Of a stretch of DNA of 64,000 nucleotides, positions 9,210 to 50,658 are shown piece by piece (the first letter of the stretch is position 1; every line of letters begins with the position of its first letter). Both the position numbers and the translations under genes were made by a program. The stretch is from Gloeocapsopsis sp. IPPAS B-1203 (GTDB lineage: Bacteria; Cyanobacteriota; Cyanobacteriia; Cyanobacteriales; Chroococcidiopsidaceae), in NCBI RefSeq assembly GCF_002749975.1, contig NZ_PEIG01000017.1:1-64000 (forward strand), read 5' to 3'. The notes beneath the pieces were generated by a model. It was not told the DNA's origin. It worked only from the letters and a program-made list of their open reading frames with translations, and searched no databases.

Positions 9210-9821
9210 TTACGATCGCACCTTAGCTGCAACCTCAGCCACGCGACGACCCAATACTTTTGAGATTTCCAAGTCTTCTGATTTAGGTTGCAACTCACCC
9301 TTTCCACCTGCTATTGTTGTAGCCCCGTAAGGAGTACCACCACGCGCTTCTGTGTGAATCATACCTGGTGTAGAGTAAGGCACACCTACAATCAACATAC
9401 CTAAGTGTAACAGTGGAACCATCATTGTTAGTAGCGTTGTTTCTTGTCCGCCGTGAGTCGAAGCCGTGGAAGTAAAAACGCCTGCTGGTTTACCTTCCAT
9501 TTCACCATTGAGCCACAGCTGTGTAGTTGAATCTATCAACTGCTTCATCTGCGCACACATATTACCGTAACGCGTTGGAGAACCGAAAATTACAGCGTCA
9601 GCCTCGCGCAAATCATCAACTGTGCAAACGGGTATATTTTTTTGCTGTTCGCGGACTTGGCTAGCAAACTCATTTTGATCGATAATTTTGTCAACTTCTG
9701 GAAACTCTTGCACGCGCCGTAACATGACTTCGGCTTGCGAAATTGTAGCACCTTCTGCTACAGCTTTTGCCATTTGTAAGGTGTGACCGTACATTGAGTA
9801 ATAAACAACTAAAATTTTCAT
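9210..9821 (-). CDS. wrbA: NAD(P)H:quinone oxidoreductase, WrbA type
   Basis: Flavodoxin-fold FMN protein of 203 residues that reduces quinones by two electrons, avoiding semiquinone radicals. The N-terminal KILVVYYSMYGHTLQMAKAV is the phosphate-binding loop and first helix; SPTRYGNM and TSTASTHGGQETTLL are typical WrbA FMN and active-site segments. The 'GGAPYG'-like segment here reads GGTPYGATTIAGG. Length matches the family (about 200). Downstream, in the same direction, of the pirin gene and the MarR regulator, suggesting a small electrophile/quinone stress set. A stem-loop repeat lies in the 166-base gap before it, so co-transcription with the pirin gene is uncertain. Confidence 0.93.
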   Translation of the reverse strand: MKILVVYYSMYGHTLQMAKAVAEGATISQAEVMLRRVQEFPEVDKIIDQNEFASQVREQQKNIPVCTVDDLREADAVIFGSPTRYGNMCAQMKQLIDSTTQLWLNGEMEGKPAGVFTSTASTHGGQETTLLTMMVPLLHLGMLIVGVPYSTPGMIHTEARGGTPYGATTIAGGKGELQPKSEDLEISKVLGRRVAEVAAKVRS

Positions 9822-9838
9822 TTTTACCTCTTAAATTC

Positions 9839-9901
9839 TGCGAACGCCTGGTGACTAAAGTCACGGCTTTACAAACCAAGTCCACCTTCGTGGACTAACG
9901 T
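9839..9901 (+). repeat. dispersed double stem-loop repeat (partial copy)
   Basis: Contains GTGACTAAAGTCAC (hairpin) and AAACCAAGTCCACC followed by TTCGTGGACT (hairpin AGTCCAC-cttc-GTGGACT). Same family as the elements near 11262-11394, 41187-41225 and 50052-50176. Lies between wrbA and the pirin gene. Confidence 0.7.
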
Positions 9902-9987
9902 AACAACAAGGGTGATAAAACCTATGAAGATAGCTTTTGTTTGTGTAGCTGCGGTTTCTACCGAATCAGCTGATGCAGGATTCTTGA

Positions 9988-19078: not shown

Positions 19079-22000
19079 TCAATTAGGTTTTTGGTCTGAG
19101 AACAGACATTTGTCAGAGTCACAACCTGCAGGTCCTACCTCTGATAAGTCTTTGGCGTCGTATTGAATTAACGCTGACTGAAAAACGTTGGTGCGACGTT
19201 GTGTTTTGACTTGTTGCATTAGTTGCTCATATTGTTGTTTAGATATTGGTTCAAAGGGTAGGCGAGGGAAAGTTTGATGATCGTCGAATCGTGCTAGTAG
19301 CGCAGCTGAGATATAGCCTTCATTATTTTGAATTGTCTCGTAAATGTGAGTACCCAAAGCTTCAACTTCGTTTTCCCGTAGTTCGATGGTGGCGGAAGTG
19401 TTGTGCGAGACATAATACTTTTGGACTTGCATATAGAAATCCATTTGAGCGATCGCACTAAATTGACTGATATCAATTTCATCTGCACCTGGTAAATCTG
19501 CCCAAGGTACAGCTACAGGAATTTCGACTAACCACTCAGTACAACGCGGATCGAACGGATCGTTAAGTAGATTGCCGTTTTCATCTTTATCCGATTGCGA
19601 TGGTATAATGTTGTAACCATAGTCAATACAAGCCAACGCCACAGGATCGTGACTGCGGAATGTGATGCGGCGAATAAAGCGTTGCGCTTTGGGAGGATGC
19701 CAACCAGGAGAAGCACCTGTCAGTAAAGATTTTGTTCCTGAAGGTTGTACAGTAGTACAGCGGTTCGGGCGTTTAATGTTGTGGCGATCGCAGTATTCCC
19801 AAATCACTTGATGAACAATTTCTTTCCACTTACTAAGATATTCTTGCTCTTTTTGTTTATACTCTAAGCCTTGTGGTGTTTCTGGTCTTCCTGCTGTCCA
19901 CCAATGTAGCCAATCAACACCGAAAGCACGAACAAAAAAGTCAAATAATCCTGTAAAAGATACACCAACAATTGGGTCTAACTCGCGCGATTTTTGATAG
20001 CGTGGTTCAATAAATTTGTGATTTAATAATGCCGCAACCGATAGTGCACCTGCGGTAAATGCTTCTCTTTGTTCTTGCTGATTATTCGGGTCAATTTGAT
20101 TGAGATGGATCTCAGACAAATTGCAATTTCCAGTTAAAGTATTGCCAAAAACTCCCTTATGGAATTCTGGTTCATTGAAGCAATAAGTATTGTGATCGCC
20201 TGGTAACTCTTCCACGCTTTTGATGACTTGCCATTTTCCTTTTGCTGTAGGCTTACATCCTTTACTTGTATCCAATCTCTGGCAAGGAATTTGATTGCAA
20301 TCAGTAATCTGCAAATAATATAGATCTTGCGATCTTTTACCTAAGTTTGTTGCAGATGCCTTACGAGCCATCATATTTACCGATGACTGAAGTCCGCATT
20401 TGGTTAAAAGTAGCTGTAATCGATGCGCTCTTTCGTAGTCAGCAATATAAATTCTAATGCCATTTCCTTGAGTATTAGAACCATCGGTATCAGCTAGCCC
20501 AGCTATAAAAGCAAGAATTGCTTGCTTGTTCCATGAACCAATTATATTTAACGCATCAGCTTGTGTTTTCAAGCGATATAAGAGTTCTCCTGAAAACCCT
20601 AAGTCAGTAATGTCTACAAAAGAAGGCAAGTAATCATAGTTTCTTAAAGGCGATTTTTTTCCAGAAACTAAAAGTTCAGCTTTCTTGGTGTATAGTCTGA
20701 TCTTTGCGTTGCCATTCCGATCTAAAGTTCCGTCACCTACAGCTACTCCTAATGTATAAGCATACGCAGGATCAATAGCTTCTCCATCTTGATATTCAAT
20801 TACAAACGGTTCTGTATGAATTGAGTATTTGCTATGCGATAATAAATCTTTTGTCTGGACTTCTTCATAGCTTTTACCAAATCTATCTTTAACAAAGAAT
20901 CGATGGTATTCTGTGACATCTAAATAAGAGCCATCACCAAATCTAACTCTATATAATTTCTGCCCAGTATTAGTTTGAAATGGAACAACTTTACTCCAGC
21001 GTTTACCATTCCAAATTTCAACTTCTTCGCCAACAATATCTTTAATTTTATGAATACCTTGGCGGGTAATTAACAAAGTTTCTCCTGAGACACAATGGAA
21101 ATTTGCGCCAACGATTTCTCCGCAAGGATTTAGGGCATATCTTGACAGTCGATGTGCGATTTCTTCAGGTGGAAATTCATTAAAGCGATCGCGCAACCAT
21201 GCTCTTGCTTGTTCTTTACCTTGGGAATAAGCTTGGATAAATCCGGTTTTGAGTTCGGGAGTTGTTAAGATATCTGCGTTAGCACGGGCGATCGCTTCTG
21301 GCGCATATTGAATTGCCCCTTCGCCGGAATAATATTGATTGCGTACGGCATCAACACATTCATCTAAAGTTGGTTGACGATGAAAAACGCGCGTATGATT
21401 TGCCATTCGTAGCGCATCGCGTTCAGGATCAATTCGCCAGTTACCATTCTCATCTTGTTGCCACAAATTACCTTTGGCATTGGCAAATAATTCATCGTTA
21501 CTGTCACCTTGGCGCATTCCAGCTGATCTTCGGACATTGCCAGCCACTACCACTACAGCAGCTTCATCGATTAATAAACAGCATTCTACAGAGTTGAGTT
21601 GGCGTCCTACAGCTTTATTGAGAATCGCGGCACAGCGTTGATATAGTTCTGGTAGCTTGATCGGGTTAGCAACGCCACCAAAGCCTTTGAGAAGTTCACC
21701 CGCTGGGCGGACATTCTGAAGATCAATGCGGACATTGACTTCCCCTGCAAATTGTGCATCGCTGGATAGTTCGAGAAGTGTTTGATACGATTTAACCCAA
21801 CCTTGACGACTATCACCGACATAAATTGTAATATCGTTACCAGAAATCTGAATTTCGGTGTTTTCTTTGCGTTCGAGTGCTGGTGTTATCCCAATTTCTC
21901 CAGTAATTGTCACGTTTAAGCGATTGCAAATTGGTGGGAGCTGATTGATGTATTGCGGTTCGAGAACAGCACCAGTGCCACAACCCATCATTGCGAGATC

Positions 22001-22351
22001 CATCATCAAACCAAACGCCCGCCAGTCAGTAACGTTGGTACTCGTGCAGTTATAGGCTCCAGAAAAATTTTCTTGCTTTTCGATCCATTCTGTACCACCA
22101 ACCCATAACCAACGTCCACTAGGAAGCGCTTTCATCTGGTGCTGCATTTTAGTGAGGATAGCAACTTCAGTATCAGTGAGTTTGCCCAACTTAACTAAAC
22201 CCTTGAGCGTGCGATCGCATACTTCTTCCCAGCTTTCGCGTCTACCATTCAGCTGGCGACGGCTATACGTTCTGAAAAATACAGGATTAGCAGCAGGGGC
22301 AGTTTCAGGGAACTGGCTAGTTTGATTAGTGCGCTCAAGCTCTCGAACCAT
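19079..22351 (-). CDS. nrdJ: adenosylcobalamin-dependent ribonucleotide reductase with intein
   Basis: Class II ribonucleoside-triphosphate reductase, monomeric type; it makes deoxynucleotides with a B12-generated thiyl radical. The frame encodes 1090 residues, of which 420-742 are an in-frame intein, leaving a 767-residue enzyme, normal for the family. The extein halves join as NPCGEI...NFH + CNLSEIHLNQIDP. NPCGEI holds the thiyl-radical Cys and the Cys at the splice junction is one of the redox pair. The C-terminal Cys pair is in GCDSDKC. The loop ALPSGRWLWVGGT and the segment FSGAYNCTSTNV are typical substrate-site regions. No cobalamin riboswitch is recognisable upstream. Confidence 0.95.
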   Translation of the reverse strand: MVRELERTNQTSQFPETAPAANPVFFRTYSRRQLNGRRESWEEVCDRTLKGLVKLGKLTDTEVAILTKMQHQMKALPSGRWLWVGGTEWIEKQENFSGAYNCTSTNVTDWRAFGLMMDLAMMGCGTGAVLEPQYINQLPPICNRLNVTITGEIGITPALERKENTEIQISGNDITIYVGDSRQGWVKSYQTLLELSSDAQFAGEVNVRIDLQNVRPAGELLKGFGGVANPIKLPELYQRCAAILNKAVGRQLNSVECCLLIDEAAVVVVAGNVRRSAGMRQGDSNDELFANAKGNLWQQDENGNWRIDPERDALRMANHTRVFHRQPTLDECVDAVRNQYYSGEGAIQYAPEAIARANADILTTPELKTGFIQAYSQGKEQARAWLRDRFNEFPPEEIAHRLSRYALNPCGEIVGANFHCVSGETLLITRQGIHKIKDIVGEEVEIWNGKRWSKVVPFQTNTGQKLYRVRFGDGSYLDVTEYHRFFVKDRFGKSYEEVQTKDLLSHSKYSIHTEPFVIEYQDGEAIDPAYAYTLGVAVGDGTLDRNGNAKIRLYTKKAELLVSGKKSPLRNYDYLPSFVDITDLGFSGELLYRLKTQADALNIIGSWNKQAILAFIAGLADTDGSNTQGNGIRIYIADYERAHRLQLLLTKCGLQSSVNMMARKASATNLGKRSQDLYYLQITDCNQIPCQRLDTSKGCKPTAKGKWQVIKSVEELPGDHNTYCFNEPEFHKGVFGNTLTGNCNLSEIHLNQIDPNNQQEQREAFTAGALSVAALLNHKFIEPRYQKSRELDPIVGVSFTGLFDFFVRAFGVDWLHWWTAGRPETPQGLEYKQKEQEYLSKWKEIVHQVIWEYCDRHNIKRPNRCTTVQPSGTKSLLTGASPGWHPPKAQRFIRRITFRSHDPVALACIDYGYNIIPSQSDKDENGNLLNDPFDPRCTEWLVEIPVAVPWADLPGADEIDISQFSAIAQMDFYMQVQKYYVSHNTSATIELRENEVEALGTHIYETIQNNEGYISAALLARFDDHQTFPRLPFEPISKQQYEQLMQQVKTQRRTNVFQSALIQYDAKDLSEVGPAGCDSDKCLFSDQKPN
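20126..21094 (-). mobile_element. intein with LAGLIDADG homing endonuclease inside nrdJ
   Basis: 323 codons, from Cys420 (CVSGETLLITRQG, splicing block A) to Asn742 (NTLTGN, followed by Cys+1). Block B is VTEYHRFFV with the T-x-x-H motif. Block F is YCFNEPEFHKGVFGN. The penultimate residue is Gly rather than the usual His, as in some other inteins. Two dodecapeptide motifs, YTLGVAVGDGTLD and FIAGLADTDGS, mark a complete LAGLIDADG endonuclease, each with its acidic residue. Inserted at the most conserved point of the host enzyme, immediately before a redox-active Cys that also acts as the splicing nucleophile. Confidence 0.93.
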
Positions 22352-46894: not shown

Positions 46895-49800
46895 TTACAA
46901 CCTCGTCTGAATCTGATGCAAAATGCTTTTATCTTTGATTTTGTCATCATTTGCCAGTAATAAAATCTTACTGATAACCTCGCTGATCTTTGAATCGCCA
47001 CCATCGCTAAAAGGCAAAAAAAGTTTCTGTCGTTTTCCCCAGCGATCCGGAACAATACAAAGATGATGACCTGGTTCAATGTGAATTGCTGCACTAGCAA
47101 GATGTACTTGATAGCAAGCTAATTTTCCTTGTACTTGCGCAAAATGTCCTGCGACAGTCACATTTGCTAAACCCAAATCAGCGACTAGCGTTCTGATTAA
47201 GTCCCCACGTTGTTGATAAGTCTCTTGTGATAAACGTGTGTCTCCCTCGCGTTGTGCTACCGAAACGACTAAATCAGCATCACGCATCACTTCAGAGAAA
47301 ATGACTGGCGGGATATCAACTAAAGGTAACGCTGTTCCATCAATAAATTGATCGGCTTGAAAATAAATGCGATCGCTTGTAATCTCCTCTGATGCAGATA
47401 AATAGTAACTCGCATCTTGAAACTCAAAATAGGCAACTAAATCTAATTCAGGAAAGACTTTAAACGGTATCGGATATTCACCATAACCAAGCTGCCAACC
47501 CCGCGATTGTAATAGCCTAGCAACGACCCGTGATTCTAGTTTATGTCCTGCAAAGCGATACGAATAATTGTAAGTTTCTTGTTCCGCAGGTGTCACCAAA
47601 TAAAGTTTGCGAAATACTTGTTTAAAAGGCTGTACAAGGCGTTGACGCACAATTTCTTGTTGCCATGCTGCTAATTCACCTTTGTGAAAAAGATGATCTG
47701 GATGAGCGATATAAGTTTGATTCTGTAATGGTATCAATTTGCCATCCAAGTTTTGTACTGCTAAGGTATCAGCCACAAACAAACCACAGCTTTGTTCCGT
47801 CAATAAAACAAGTTGATTCAACATATCCCGTGCGATCGGGATTTGACTAAAGATACTCAGTTCCTCATAGCTTAGCTTCTGCCCTGTTGCCATTATTTCC
47901 TCAAAATGACAGCGAAAGCGAGTTATCTGATTGCGCAGTTGCTGTATTGTCGCTTTAATTTCGGTATAGATTTGATTTTGGCGAACAACTGTAGGCACAG
48001 ACTTAAGCAAGCGATCGCCTCGGTATACTCTAAGTTGAACATCAGCTTGGCTCAAAGCAAGGGTTAGTTGATATTCACCAATTGACCAATGACACGTTTC
48101 TGGTGCTATCTTTTGGTTAAAACGCGCCTCCATCATCAACTCTAAGCTTTGCGCGTTGGGATAACCTGCGACTTGTGCTAAATACGCTAAAGCTTGTTGC
48201 ACTGCTGTTTGTTCGTTTGCCTGTTTTTCTGCACCAAATTTTTTGCTTTCTTTGAGAAACTGCTGTAGAAATAAATAACGTTCTAGAACTTCTTCTTGTC
48301 CCTGTTCGAGGGGTAACAAACCATAAGCTTTGGCAGCAAACTGCTTGCGTTTAGGTAGTGACTGTTCAATTTCTGTACGATTCCAACCCGCGATCGCCTC
48401 AATCAAAAATACAGTATTCTTATCAAAAACTTTAGCCTCACGCCATAGCGTCCAAATTTCGCGTCCTAAATCCCCAGCTTTTACAAAAGCACTTCTCAGC
48501 GCAGCAACTGTTTTTAAATCAAGTTCTACTTCAAATGTATCGGCAGTGTTTTGTTTAATAATTTTCAGTATATTTGTTAAGGGTAATGCCTCATCCCAAC
48601 CCAAAGCTACACACAATACATTCTGGCTATTTTGAGCAATCGGTAGTAAATATTTTAATGAAGTAAAAGGTAATCTTTGCAACTGAGCAACAAGTGTTTT
48701 ACGATCTGTGGGTGATTCTGGTTCAGTATCAGTTGCTTGTGCCAAGTTAAGCACAGCCCTCGTAATTCCATCTTGCCACTTAATTTTGTTCGGATTTTGC
48801 CTGTAATACTTGTTGGCGTGAGGATACACCAGCTTACCAAGTTGAAATATGCTATGTTGCCTAACAGATTCTAATAAATAATGACTGCCTTGAATCTTAA
48901 TTCGTGTCAGGATGTAGTAGTTTTCTTTTGAAAGGTTTTGGGCTGTTTCCCGTACTAATTTGTCACAGTATTCTACAATTACTCGGCTAAATTCATCGCT
49001 AACTTGCGCGTGAAAAGTAGTGATAACTCCATCAGCAGTCAATTCACAAGCATCATTAAGAATGTGTGGTAAATGTTGTACAGCTTGACAAAATTCTGTA
49101 TAGCCGAAACGTCCATATTCATGCAAACGATTCATCAAGCGTGGAAAGTAATAGCAAAGTCCTTTGTCTGATTGTGAGTAGAAACCACGTCCGTAAATTT
49201 GATATGCCCGAATTGATTTACAACTGTCAAAATCATATGGGTACGCATATGCATCAAAGTTGAATTGCCATTGCTGCTGTTGAGACTTGGCATCATCGTT
49301 GTAACAAGGAAACCCTTGAGGAGTGTAGTACATTTTCCCAAAGTAATTAGCAGGATCGAAAGGTCCAAAATCCCATTTTCCAAGCACAAGTTGTTCAACT
49401 AGATGTATGTTTTGCGAAGATGGTGGTAGCTCTAGCACTAACGCTAAGCAATCTTGTAAAGTTGGTGTTAAATACAATTCAGGAACACAGCAAATCCTCT
49501 GACGCTGTTTGATTTCGACTTCGTTGGTATAAAAGGGATTTGCCAGAATTTGTATCAATCTTGTTGCTAGGCGATCGCAGATGTCAGGTGGAGTAAATTC
49601 AATCAAGCAGGCAGTTAAGATTTCTACAACAGCTTGATATGCTGGTGCATTGAGTATGTAAGAATGCCACAGTATCGGATTGAAATACATATCAGCCGCC
49701 AAGCTACCTACTTCAGTTATTGGCAAGCGTGTTATTAATTGCTCTAAACTTCTTTTGACTAATGATGGCGATCGCCCAAAATCGTGAGGCACACTCCAAC

Positions 49801-50011
49801 CAAAAACTATATGCCCACTAGGAGTATTGAGCATTGCCTCATTGCTCAAGGTTGCCATTTCACCCCTAAGTAGCAACTGGTAAATTCCTTGTTGGGTATG
49901 GAAATGCTGGTAAGTCTTAATCTGATCTATCTGCCATACATCTACAAGTAAAGAGGAAATCTCTCGTTCAAATAAAGTAACTCTTTCTTGCAGCGAGGTT
50001 GGTATTTCCAT
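46895..50011 (-). CDS. large DUF4132/DUF5724-DUF7737-type protein (MolR-like), unknown function
   Basis: 1038 residues, cytoplasmic, no membrane segment. The N-terminal 600 residues are helical and Trp/Tyr-rich with no domain I can name. The region about 640-880 resembles DUF4132/DUF5724 (for example YRFAGHKLESRVVARLLQSRGW). The C-terminal part (about 900-1030) matches DUF7737 as I remember it: DIPPVIFSEVMRDADLVVSV, then LACYQVHLASAAIHIEPGHH and LCIVPDRW. Relatives include E. coli MolR/YehI-type proteins, whose molecular role is unknown. The gene before it on the same strand encodes a ubiquitin-like protein ending in Gly-Gly, with a repeat element between. No ATPase or E1-like domain was seen. 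Confidence 0.8.
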   Translation of the reverse strand: MEIPTSLQERVTLFEREISSLLVDVWQIDQIKTYQHFHTQQGIYQLLLRGEMATLSNEAMLNTPSGHIVFGWSVPHDFGRSPSLVKRSLEQLITRLPITEVGSLAADMYFNPILWHSYILNAPAYQAVVEILTACLIEFTPPDICDRLATRLIQILANPFYTNEVEIKQRQRICCVPELYLTPTLQDCLALVLELPPSSQNIHLVEQLVLGKWDFGPFDPANYFGKMYYTPQGFPCYNDDAKSQQQQWQFNFDAYAYPYDFDSCKSIRAYQIYGRGFYSQSDKGLCYYFPRLMNRLHEYGRFGYTEFCQAVQHLPHILNDACELTADGVITTFHAQVSDEFSRVIVEYCDKLVRETAQNLSKENYYILTRIKIQGSHYLLESVRQHSIFQLGKLVYPHANKYYRQNPNKIKWQDGITRAVLNLAQATDTEPESPTDRKTLVAQLQRLPFTSLKYLLPIAQNSQNVLCVALGWDEALPLTNILKIIKQNTADTFEVELDLKTVAALRSAFVKAGDLGREIWTLWREAKVFDKNTVFLIEAIAGWNRTEIEQSLPKRKQFAAKAYGLLPLEQGQEEVLERYLFLQQFLKESKKFGAEKQANEQTAVQQALAYLAQVAGYPNAQSLELMMEARFNQKIAPETCHWSIGEYQLTLALSQADVQLRVYRGDRLLKSVPTVVRQNQIYTEIKATIQQLRNQITRFRCHFEEIMATGQKLSYEELSIFSQIPIARDMLNQLVLLTEQSCGLFVADTLAVQNLDGKLIPLQNQTYIAHPDHLFHKGELAAWQQEIVRQRLVQPFKQVFRKLYLVTPAEQETYNYSYRFAGHKLESRVVARLLQSRGWQLGYGEYPIPFKVFPELDLVAYFEFQDASYYLSASEEITSDRIYFQADQFIDGTALPLVDIPPVIFSEVMRDADLVVSVAQREGDTRLSQETYQQRGDLIRTLVADLGLANVTVAGHFAQVQGKLACYQVHLASAAIHIEPGHHLCIVPDRWGKRQKLFLPFSDGGDSKISEVISKILLLANDDKIKDKSILHQIQTRL

Positions 50012-50051
50012 GATTTATACCGTTAGCTAAATGCCATGAACTATAAGCACC

Positions 50052-50176
50052 TTGACTGAAGTCGAGGCTACTTAAGCAAAGTGTGCATTCGCACACTAAA
50101 TATGAGAGTTTGATCGCTAAGTCTACGGAGGTAGACTTTGCTTGTTTAGCTGCGAATAAATTCGCTAAGCGTTCAT
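50052..50176 (-). repeat. dispersed stem-loop repeat between the Ubl-like and DUF4132-type genes
   Basis: Several hairpins: GTGTGCATTCGCACAC, AAGTCTACGGAGGTAGACTT and GCGAATAAATTCGC. The last two plus TTTGCTTGTTTAGCT are the inverse complement of the element at 11262-11394. Confidence 0.7.
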
Positions 50177-50177
50177 G

Positions 50178-50618
50178 TTAACCACCTACCAATGGCATTA
50201 ACCGCAAGAATACAACTTTTGTTTCTCGACTCAGCGTTATTTCTGCTTCTAAGTTTTCTACTTGCTGACCGTTGACTAAAATAATGTATGCCCCATCAGT
50301 AAACGCTTGCAGTGCCTTTTTCACCTCTATTTTGGTATCAATTTGAAGTGTATTATGTGGCTTTGAAGGAAAGCGTACAGCTCCTTGTTGCGCTTGCTCG
50401 GCAATTTCTGATGTGGTTAAATACTGACGTTCTAAAGCACGACGCACTTGCTGTGCATCCATTTGATGTTGTATCTGTAACTCGCGAACCTGGGCTTCTA
50501 CGCTGCGTTGAATCAGTTCAGCGACTCTAAGATGTTGGGAGTGCAATAAGACTTCTGGTAGTTGTGGTGCTTCTGGAAGCCCACCAAAAACTTGAGTACG
50601 AACTGCGATCGCTGGCAT
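50178..50618 (-). CDS. ThiS/MoaD-like ubiquitin-fold protein with C-terminal Gly-Gly
   Basis: 146 residues. Residues 1-12 are a beta strand, about 30-85 are a helical insertion rich in Gln, Glu and Arg, and about 95-146 (QAFTDGAYIILVNGQQVENL, then VVFLRLMPLVGG) look like the last half of a beta-grasp fold. The ending VFLRLMPLVGG resembles the MoaD/ThiS C-terminus, where the exposed Gly-Gly is adenylated by an E1-like enzyme to carry sulfur or form isopeptide bonds. This is inference from pattern; I know no named family. An inverted repeat abuts its start codon. It precedes the DUF4132-type gene. Confidence 0.7.
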   Translation of the reverse strand: MPAIAVRTQVFGGLPEAPQLPEVLLHSQHLRVAELIQRSVEAQVRELQIQHQMDAQQVRRALERQYLTTSEIAEQAQQGAVRFPSKPHNTLQIDTKIEVKKALQAFTDGAYIILVNGQQVENLEAEITLSRETKVVFLRLMPLVGG

Positions 50619-50658
50619 AGTACACTTGCTTTTTGCTAAGACTAGAACAAGTGTACTA
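50618..50658. promoter_or_regulatory. inverted repeat abutting the start codon of the Ubl-like gene
   Basis: Perfect 11-base arms TAGTACACTTG / CAAGTGTACTA with a 19-base spacer; the left arm touches the ATG (50618-50616) on the minus strand. It may bind a dimeric regulator or form an RNA hairpin over the translation start. No Shine-Dalgarno is visible, which strengthens the second option. Confidence 0.55.

What the first reader, a model, noticed from the sequence alone, without database searches (positions are those of the whole stretch)
46895..50618. Candidate undescribed pair: ubiquitin-like Gly-Gly protein plus a large DUF4132/DUF7737-type protein
Seen: a 146-residue protein ends VFLRLMPLVGG, and its last 50 residues follow the strand pattern of ThiS/MoaD. 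Next on the same strand is a 1038-residue protein with C-terminal blocks resembling DUF4132/DUF5724 and DUF7737. Known: Gly-Gly tails of ThiS/MoaD/ubiquitin-like proteins are activated by E1-like enzymes; the DUF4132 group (MolR-like) has no defined biochemistry. Inference: the large protein may be the target, carrier or enzyme for the small one. The helical insertion of about 60 residues is not seen in ThiS or MoaD. No E1, JAB protease or molybdopterin gene is nearby.
Basis: partly seen in the sequence, partly recalled or inferred. Interest (0 to 1): 0.8.

Follow-up and report, generated by a model that had tools for sequence, protein, structure and literature searches.

The report
DNA-damage ubiquitin-like protein with giant partner
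A small protein with a ubiquitin-style Gly-Gly tail sits, in distantly related bacteria, beside the same giant protein of unknown function, and the pair appears to be switched on by DNA damage, which turns two unexplained genes into one testable system.

Summary
The pair is real and not a local accident. The 146-aa protein ends in PLVGG; the 1038-aa neighbour carries the DUF5724 end, DUF4132 and DUF7737. The small family has no accepted match in four family libraries, yet it lies before the large gene in 18 of 18 cyanobacterial loci whose contig allows judgement, and in 7 of 7 loci holding it in Deinococcus, Nonomuraea, Novosphingobium and Bacteroides. Of 27 readable C-termini, 26 end GG; Bacteroides ends GRLW. 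One Cys of the large protein (C985, DUF7737) is present in all 22 readable partners of GG-type genes and is Ala in Bacteroides, though 2 of 40 other invariant columns behave likewise. The window operon has an exact LexA box with the same arms as the one before lexA. The Deinococcus orthologues DR_A0165-DR_A0166 are published as DNA-damage induced, and DR_A0165 as MoaD-like in predicted structure but Deinococcus-specific. My own fold tests were inconclusive. Best reading: a damage-inducible ubiquitin-like protein, activated in trans by the housekeeping MoeZ-type E1 and handed to the large protein. Partnership nearly certain, damage control likely, GG chemistry unproven.

The parts
50178..50618 (-). 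small GG-tail protein gene, 146 aa
   Evidence: ORF; family alignment of 23 members
50181..50186 (-). codons of the C-terminal Gly145-Gly146
   Evidence: sequence; GG in 26 of 27 readable homologues
46895..50011 (-). large partner gene, 1038 aa
   Evidence: ORF; Pfam domains
48140..48352 (-). C-terminal end of DUF5724 (residues 554-624)
47495..48010 (-). DUF4132 (residues 668-839)
46910..47215 (-). DUF7737 (residues 933-1034)
47057..47059 (-). Cys985 codon, the only invariant Cys in the last 520 residues of 16 aligned large proteins with a GG-type partner
48002..48004 (-). Lys670 codon, which varies across the sequences in the same way as Cys985
50644..50657 (-). LexA box AGTACACTTGTTCT, 25 bp before the small gene
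   Evidence: exact match to the published consensus RGTACNNNDGTWCB; conserved in three close relatives; a site with the same arms lies before lexA
50619..50628 (+). inverted copy of the left part of the box (AGTACACTTG) directly before the start codon
   Evidence: sequence; alignment

Best explanation
A two-gene, DNA-damage-inducible ubiquitin-like system. Shown here: the small GG-tail protein and the DUF4132/DUF7737 protein travel as a unit across phyla, and the window operon carries a LexA box. Published for Deinococcus: the operon is a DdrO target and is induced by DNA damage. Inferred: the small protein is a ubiquitin-fold protein whose C-terminal glycine is adenylated in trans by the housekeeping MoeZ-type (ThiF plus rhodanese) E1, as TtuC serves several such proteins in Thermus, and is then delivered to the large protein. 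Most speculative: transfer is to C985 (thioester or acyl-persulfide) near the conserved H970, with K670 as a possible second site; the HEAT/DUF5724 part of the longer family members would bind the client. The large protein would then be carrier and effector, not merely a neighbour.
For: Large gene after the small one in 18 of 18 judgeable cyanobacterial loci and in 7 of 7 others that hold the small gene. In 388 genomes of the order: small 22, DUF7737 18, both 16, Fisher 1.2e-21 with every row counted. Distance matrices of 16 pairs correlate, r=0.92, 0 of 5000 permutations. GG in 26 of 27. C985 in 22 of 22 readable large proteins from genomes with a GG-type gene, absent in the 3 of 3 resolved ones without. 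ThiF-rhodanese E1 in the genome. LexA box. RDRM within 1-2 mismatches of the published consensus before the gene in 4 of 4 Deinococcus loci, and the published DRA0165 site itself exactly in D. radiodurans. Papers, passages only: PMC8533742, PMC9650054, PMC3980101.
Against: No similarity to ThiS/MoaD above shuffled controls and no significant fold match for the partial model. No dedicated E1 beside the pair. C985 is one of 3 of 41 invariant columns that change in all three exceptions, so any chosen column would do so about 7% of the time. The second Nonomuraea copy and two fragmentary genomes keep the Cys without an adjacent small gene seen. In print, 157 proteins were shared by pull-downs of DR_A0165 with N- and with C-terminal tags, which does not favour conjugation through a free tail (PMC9650054). 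No LexA box at up to 1 mismatch in 13 of 16 further cyanobacterial loci (in two of the 13, G466 and G513, the promoter is not in reach), nor in L009, L010 and L011. Four motif types were scanned before the LexA box was singled out. The gene is broken in G005, G365, G513 and G392.
Confidence: 0.42

Rival explanations
1. Non-covalent subunit: the small protein is a regulatory or scaffold subunit of the large one. Its GG tail fills a pocket for binding only, with no E1 and no bond.
For: Pairing and correlated divergence need only binding; Bacteroides keeps the pair with a GRLW tail; no E1 beside the pair; no sequence link to ThiS/MoaD.
Against: A bare GG at the very end, kept in 26 of 27 over four phyla while members fall to 22-29% identity with the window protein, is more than docking usually demands (judgement); Cys985 is lost in the one case where GG is lost.
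Confidence: 0.33
2. Sulfur carrier: the tail becomes a thiocarboxylate (MoaD/ThiS/TtuB chemistry) and the large protein is the enzyme that spends the sulfur on an unknown product during DNA damage.
For: The genome's E1 is fused to a rhodanese; the Deinococcus orthologue was predicted similar to molybdopterin-synthase-related structures including MOCS2 and SAMP1; a shared E1 has precedent.
Against: Pfam finds only DUFs in the large protein, no known sulfur-using enzyme; damage control is unusual for sulfur transfer (recalled).
Confidence: 0.2
3. Redox regulator: as proposed for DR_A0165, the small protein binds and inhibits thioredoxin; the large gene is a bystander in the operon.
For: Knock-out survives H2O2 better; pull-down with the product of the neighbouring thioredoxin gene (PMC9650054, passages).
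Against: A thioredoxin gene is next door only in D. radiodurans among the 4 Deinococcus loci read, whereas the large gene is there in every judgeable locus.
Confidence: 0.1
4. Anti-phage or conflict system using a ubiquitin-like tag.
For: Two of six wider-family DUF4132 loci read sit in AAA/VWA/DUF5682/SWIM clusters on plasmids; patchy distribution.
Against: No PADLOC model matches 6 of 6 proteins tried; no relatives in four viral-contig scans and one phage search, which see only part of the possible relatives; no defence genes recognised by eye around the pairs.
Confidence: 0.08

Closest known systems
DR_A0165 (SEP068184) / DR_A0166 of Deinococcus radiodurans
   Same: Orthologous pair (identified in L025 by gene order after the thioredoxin gene and by the exact published RDRM): 2-bp gap, DUF5724-DUF4132-DUF7737 partner; damage-inducible in print
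   Different: Large protein 1626 aa instead of 1038; DdrO/RDRM control instead of a LexA box; tail ALAGG; in print as unknowns, the small one as not conserved outside Deinococcus
MoaD / ThiS / Urm1 / SAMP / TtuB ubiquitin-like sulfur carriers and modifiers
   Same: Small protein with bare C-terminal Gly-Gly; published model of the orthologue resembles this group; E1 in the genome
   Different: No detectable sequence similarity; extra stretch before the last strands; own giant partner; damage control
MolR/YehI-type DUF4132 proteins
   Same: DUF4132 domain; MolR is called a LexA-regulon member in PMC8533742 (passage)
   Different: Six wider-family plasmid loci read (Streptomyces 2, Rhodococcus 2, Iodobacter, Allorhizobium) have neither a small homologue nor a DUF7737 match; E. 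coli itself was not examined
Bacterial ubiquitin-like conjugation operons (Bil and related; recalled)
   Same: Ubiquitin-like protein encoded with a partner
   Different: No E1 or JAB gene on the window's contig; E2 not searched

Membership tests
ThiS/MoaD/Urm1-type ubiquitin-like carriers | C-terminal Gly-Gly | tested here: met
   26 of 27 readable C-termini
ThiS/MoaD/Urm1-type ubiquitin-like carriers | beta-grasp fold | tested here: inconclusive
   Whole-protein model pLDDT 43.5; last 62 residues pLDDT 69.3, E-H-E-E-E, 0 Foldseek hits at E<=0.001; published prediction for DR_A0165 resembles MOCS2 and SAMP1
ThiS/MoaD/Urm1-type ubiquitin-like carriers | sequence or profile similarity to PF02597 members | tested here: not met
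   hhalign not above controls; positive control between two PF02597 groups found; no Pfam match
ThiS/MoaD/Urm1-type ubiquitin-like carriers | activation by an E1-like enzyme | not testable with these tools
   A ThiF-rhodanese protein exists elsewhere in the genome
DUF5724-DUF4132-DUF7737 proteins | all three Pfam domains above cut-off | tested here: met
   DUF5724 only over profile positions 1140-1211 of 1214
LexA (SOS) regulon of the host | LexA box in the promoter | tested here: met
LexA (SOS) regulon of the host | LexA binding and damage induction | not testable with these tools
   none for this organism
Deinococcus RDR (DdrO) regulon, orthologous operon | RDRM in the promoter | tested here: met
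   L025:4065-4084 exact to the published site; 4 of 4 loci within 2 mismatches of the consensus; ChIP-seq and induction published
Bacterial ubiquitin-like conjugation operons | E1 and JAB encoded beside the ubiquitin-like gene | tested here: not met
   No ThiF or Prok-JAB match on contig C17
Bacterial ubiquitin-like conjugation operons | E2 encoded beside the ubiquitin-like gene | not tested
   E2 families were not searched for
MoaD-MoaE molybdopterin synthase | partner is MoaE | tested here: not met
   Pfam scan of the large protein shows no MoaE
Known anti-phage systems | PADLOC model match | tested here: not met
   0 of 6 proteins

The most novel reading that the evidence does not exclude
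A DNA-damage-induced ubiquitin-like conjugation system of bacteria in which the DUF4132-DUF7737 giant is a new class of Cys-dependent carrier or ligase: the Gly-Gly of the small protein is loaded by the housekeeping E1 and passed to Cys985, then to client proteins held by the HEAT/DUF5724 part. Bacteroides, which lacks both the GG and the Cys, would be a natural double mutant that keeps only the binding.
Probability: 0.22. Interest if true: 0.93.

Novelty: new variant of a known kind. Interest (0 to 1): 0.74.

Why it matters
It joins three unexplained things: the DUF4132/DUF7737 giants, an orphan GG-tail family, and a strongly damage-induced Deinococcus operon whose role is said in print to remain to be discovered (PMC8533742). 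If the tail is chemically active, bacteria would have a ubiquitin-like arm of the DNA-damage response, under LexA in one phylum and DdrO in another. It yields sharp tests in a harmless, tractable organism: GG deletion, one Cys, one E1.

Tried and rejected
Single-protein scan of genome contigs found one relative only, the split gene of Gloeocapsopsis crepidinum. Four viral-contig scans and one phage search gave no relatives. Searches of solved structures gave nothing meaningful. hhalign against ThiS/MoaD, also with the insertion columns taken out and with shuffled controls, gave no support. Structure models: whole protein useless, C-terminal part suggestive only. The 'helical insertion' is not constant in length over the family.

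Rows dropped: G001 (E 0.004, residues 8-65 inside an 806-aa frame) and G430 (E 0.008, inside a 330-aa frame; like frames gave weak second hits in G445, G466 and G313) are treated as chance in the text but are counted in the Fisher values quoted. A second C-terminal fragment in G414 (C337) was not read. G392's small gene is broken and has no readable tail. My first conserved-residue count picked sequences by the PFKQ motif, kept 17 of 20 loci and so biased that motif; it is replaced. In one search the second Nonomuraea copy was read in a wrong frame; one search reads it rightly, one search leaves it out. The third DUF4132 place in Nonomuraea was not read. DUF7737 is off the contig in G442, G434 and not matched in G392, so C985 is unread there. 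L028:5950-6402 in the alignments starts mid-frame, not at a start codon.

Considered and rejected: chance GG (family-wide conservation); molybdopterin synthase (no MoaE in the partner); known defence system (no PADLOC match); LexA control as a general rule (most cyanobacterial loci scanned lack the box). The published statements that DR_A0165 has no RDRM and is not conserved outside Deinococcus are contradicted. That paper limited its peptides to 100 aa, whereas the ORF I use is 134 aa, so its start codon may differ.
Full report
Observation. The large protein has the end of DUF5724, DUF4132 and DUF7737 above cut-off; the small one reaches no cut-off in Pfam or NCBIfam, and neither matches PADLOC or PHROGs at E<=0.01. 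The one named relative of the small protein found in genome contigs is Gloeocapsopsis crepidinum, whose contig has the length and coordinates of G005:C31, scored as the same genus.

The pair across cyanobacteria. Among 292 genomes drawn over the phylum, the small protein is in 6 (one, G001, a weak hit I discount) and DUF7737 in 6; five genomes have both (Fisher 2e-9 counting G001). With a profile of eight members, 22 of 388 genomes of the order match (21 without G430), 18 of 388 have DUF7737, 16 have both (Fisher 1.2e-21 on all rows). In 18 of 18 loci whose contig runs on, a large homologue follows the small gene on the same strand: the window, G143 and G014 and 15 more. These 18 include G005, G365 and G392, where the small gene is broken, and G392 where the large one is in pieces too. 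In G414, G513 and G080 the contig ends first, in G080 behind an IS200/IS605-like element. DUF7737 without a small gene: G357 and G369, on short contigs, not followed further.

Other phyla. In the plasmid collection the same order occurs in four Deinococcus species, Nonomuraea gerenzanensis, Novosphingobium humi and Bacteroides finegoldii, with gaps from -4 to 37 bp. DUF4132-DUF7737 proteins without a detectable small gene in the stretch read exist too: Acetobacter, a second Nonomuraea copy, and G044, a genome marked 7% contaminated. Six wider-family DUF4132 loci had neither a small homologue nor a DUF7737 match. Distances between small proteins and between large proteins correlate over 16 pairs (r=0.92, 0 of 5000 permutations; shared ancestry contributes).

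The tail. All 20 readable cyanobacterial C-termini end PLVGG, those of the broken genes of G005, G365 and G513 included; four Deinococcus end ALAGG, Nonomuraea PLVGG, Novosphingobium PLKGG; Bacteroides ends LSGRLW. That is 26 of 27.

A cysteine that goes with the tail. The window's C985 in DUF7737 (motif LCIVP) is Cys in all 22 readable large proteins from genomes with an adjacent GG-type gene (in G005 and G365 that gene is broken; in G080 and G332 part of the pair is on another contig). It is Ala in Bacteroides, whose partner has no GG, and Phe and Asp in the Acetobacter and G044 proteins, for which no partner was seen. Cys is also kept in the second Nonomuraea copy (the GG gene is elsewhere in that genome) and in G357 and G369. 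Fisher 4e-4 without these three, 6e-3 with them counted against me, ignoring relatedness. Control: of 41 columns invariant in 16 GG-partner sequences, 3 change in all three exceptions, K670, C985 and L1018, while 20 are kept in all. So the pattern is suggestive, about 7% for a chosen column, but it picks out the only invariant Cys and an invariant Lys.

Regulation. 25 bp before the small gene lies AGTACACTTGTTCT, an exact match to the published cyanobacterial LexA box RGTACNNNDGTWCB (PMC3091678, passages, where it was one of four motif types scanned). The window has three exact matches, 0.48 expected; the other two lie inside long coding frames. The narrower AGTACNNNTGTTCT, which I wrote after seeing the site, occurs four times in 5.9 Mb (reversed control: once); one is 30 bp before lexA itself, the other two lie inside reading frames. 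The box is unchanged in three close relatives, but 13 of 16 further loci have none at up to one mismatch, two of them without the promoter in reach. In D. radiodurans the operon DRA0165-DRA0166 was found by ChIP-seq, RNA-seq and motif to be a DdrO target, and tagged DRA0166 rises after mitomycin C in wild type but not without IrrE (PMC8533742, passages). I find that motif at L025:4065-4084 and like motifs in the other three Deinococcus promoters, against the statement in PMC9650054 that there is none. That paper also reports induction by radiation and H2O2, better H2O2 survival of the knock-out, binding to thioredoxin, a predicted structure similar to MOCS2, SAMP1 and other entries it links to molybdopterin synthase (1WGK among them is Urm1 by my recall), and no conservation outside Deinococcus (passages). 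The last point does not hold.

Fold. My tests do not settle it. Profiles do not link the family to ThiS/MoaD, while the positive control is found. The whole-protein model is poor (pLDDT 43.5). The last 62 residues alone give strand-helix-strand-strand-strand at pLDDT 69.3, without a significant PDB match.

Enzymes in trans. The genome has a ThiF-rhodanese protein (the MoeZ type) with a Prok-JAB match about 200 bp away on contig C2, and a second ThiF/JAB pair on C13. Thermus TtuC serves several ubiquitin-like proteins, and TtuB is also conjugated (PMC3980101, passages), so a missing E1 in the operon is no obstacle. G014 and G080, 2 of 6 genomes tested, have the pair without a Prok-JAB match, so JAB seems not needed. 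A parallel worth noting: Urm1 conjugation to a yeast peroxiredoxin is reduced in thioredoxin mutants (PMC7016264, abstract).

Verdict. Partnership: nearly certain. Damage control: published for Deinococcus, likely for the window. Ubiquitin-like chemistry: plausible, unproven. Literature: full-text searches for DUF4132 (3 papers), DUF5724/DUF7737/MolR/YehI (40 of 201 listed), DRA0165/6 (20 of 28 listed), ubiquitin-like with SOS terms (15) and a mixed search (8 of 324 listed) showed no paper that describes the pair as a system; the library holds open-licence papers only.

Noticed in passing
L012/L013 (G005), L100 (G365), L101 (G513), L102 (G392): The small gene is broken in several genomes: split between two contig ends in G005, internal deletion in G365, split frames in G513, truncated against a damaged large gene in G392; in G005 the large gene is also frame-shifted near its end. 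The operon seems dispensable and decays.
   Followed up: partly
L011:10921-12617: IS200/IS605-like TnpA and TnpB-like genes (recognised by eye) directly after the small gene in G080, apparently separating it from the large gene (L022, another contig).
   Followed up: partly
G000 contig C2:556362-557642: ThiF-rhodanese protein with a Prok-JAB match beside it, far from the window: candidate activating and cleaving enzymes in trans.
   Followed up: partly
L138, L139: Plasmid clusters DUF4132-DUF4132-AAA-DUF5682-VWA (Iodobacter) and DUF5682-DUF4132-VWA-SWIM (Allorhizobium): another branch of DUF4132 without a GG protein.
   Followed up: no
window 19079-22351: Ribonucleotide-reductase-like protein with what looks like an intein in the middle (recognised by eye, no search).
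   Followed up: no
L026:2167-3921 and 9454-9924: In Bacteroides a rhomboid protease gene ends 7 bp before the small gene and a GAF-domain gene follows the large gene after 7 bp; possible further partners there.
   Followed up: no
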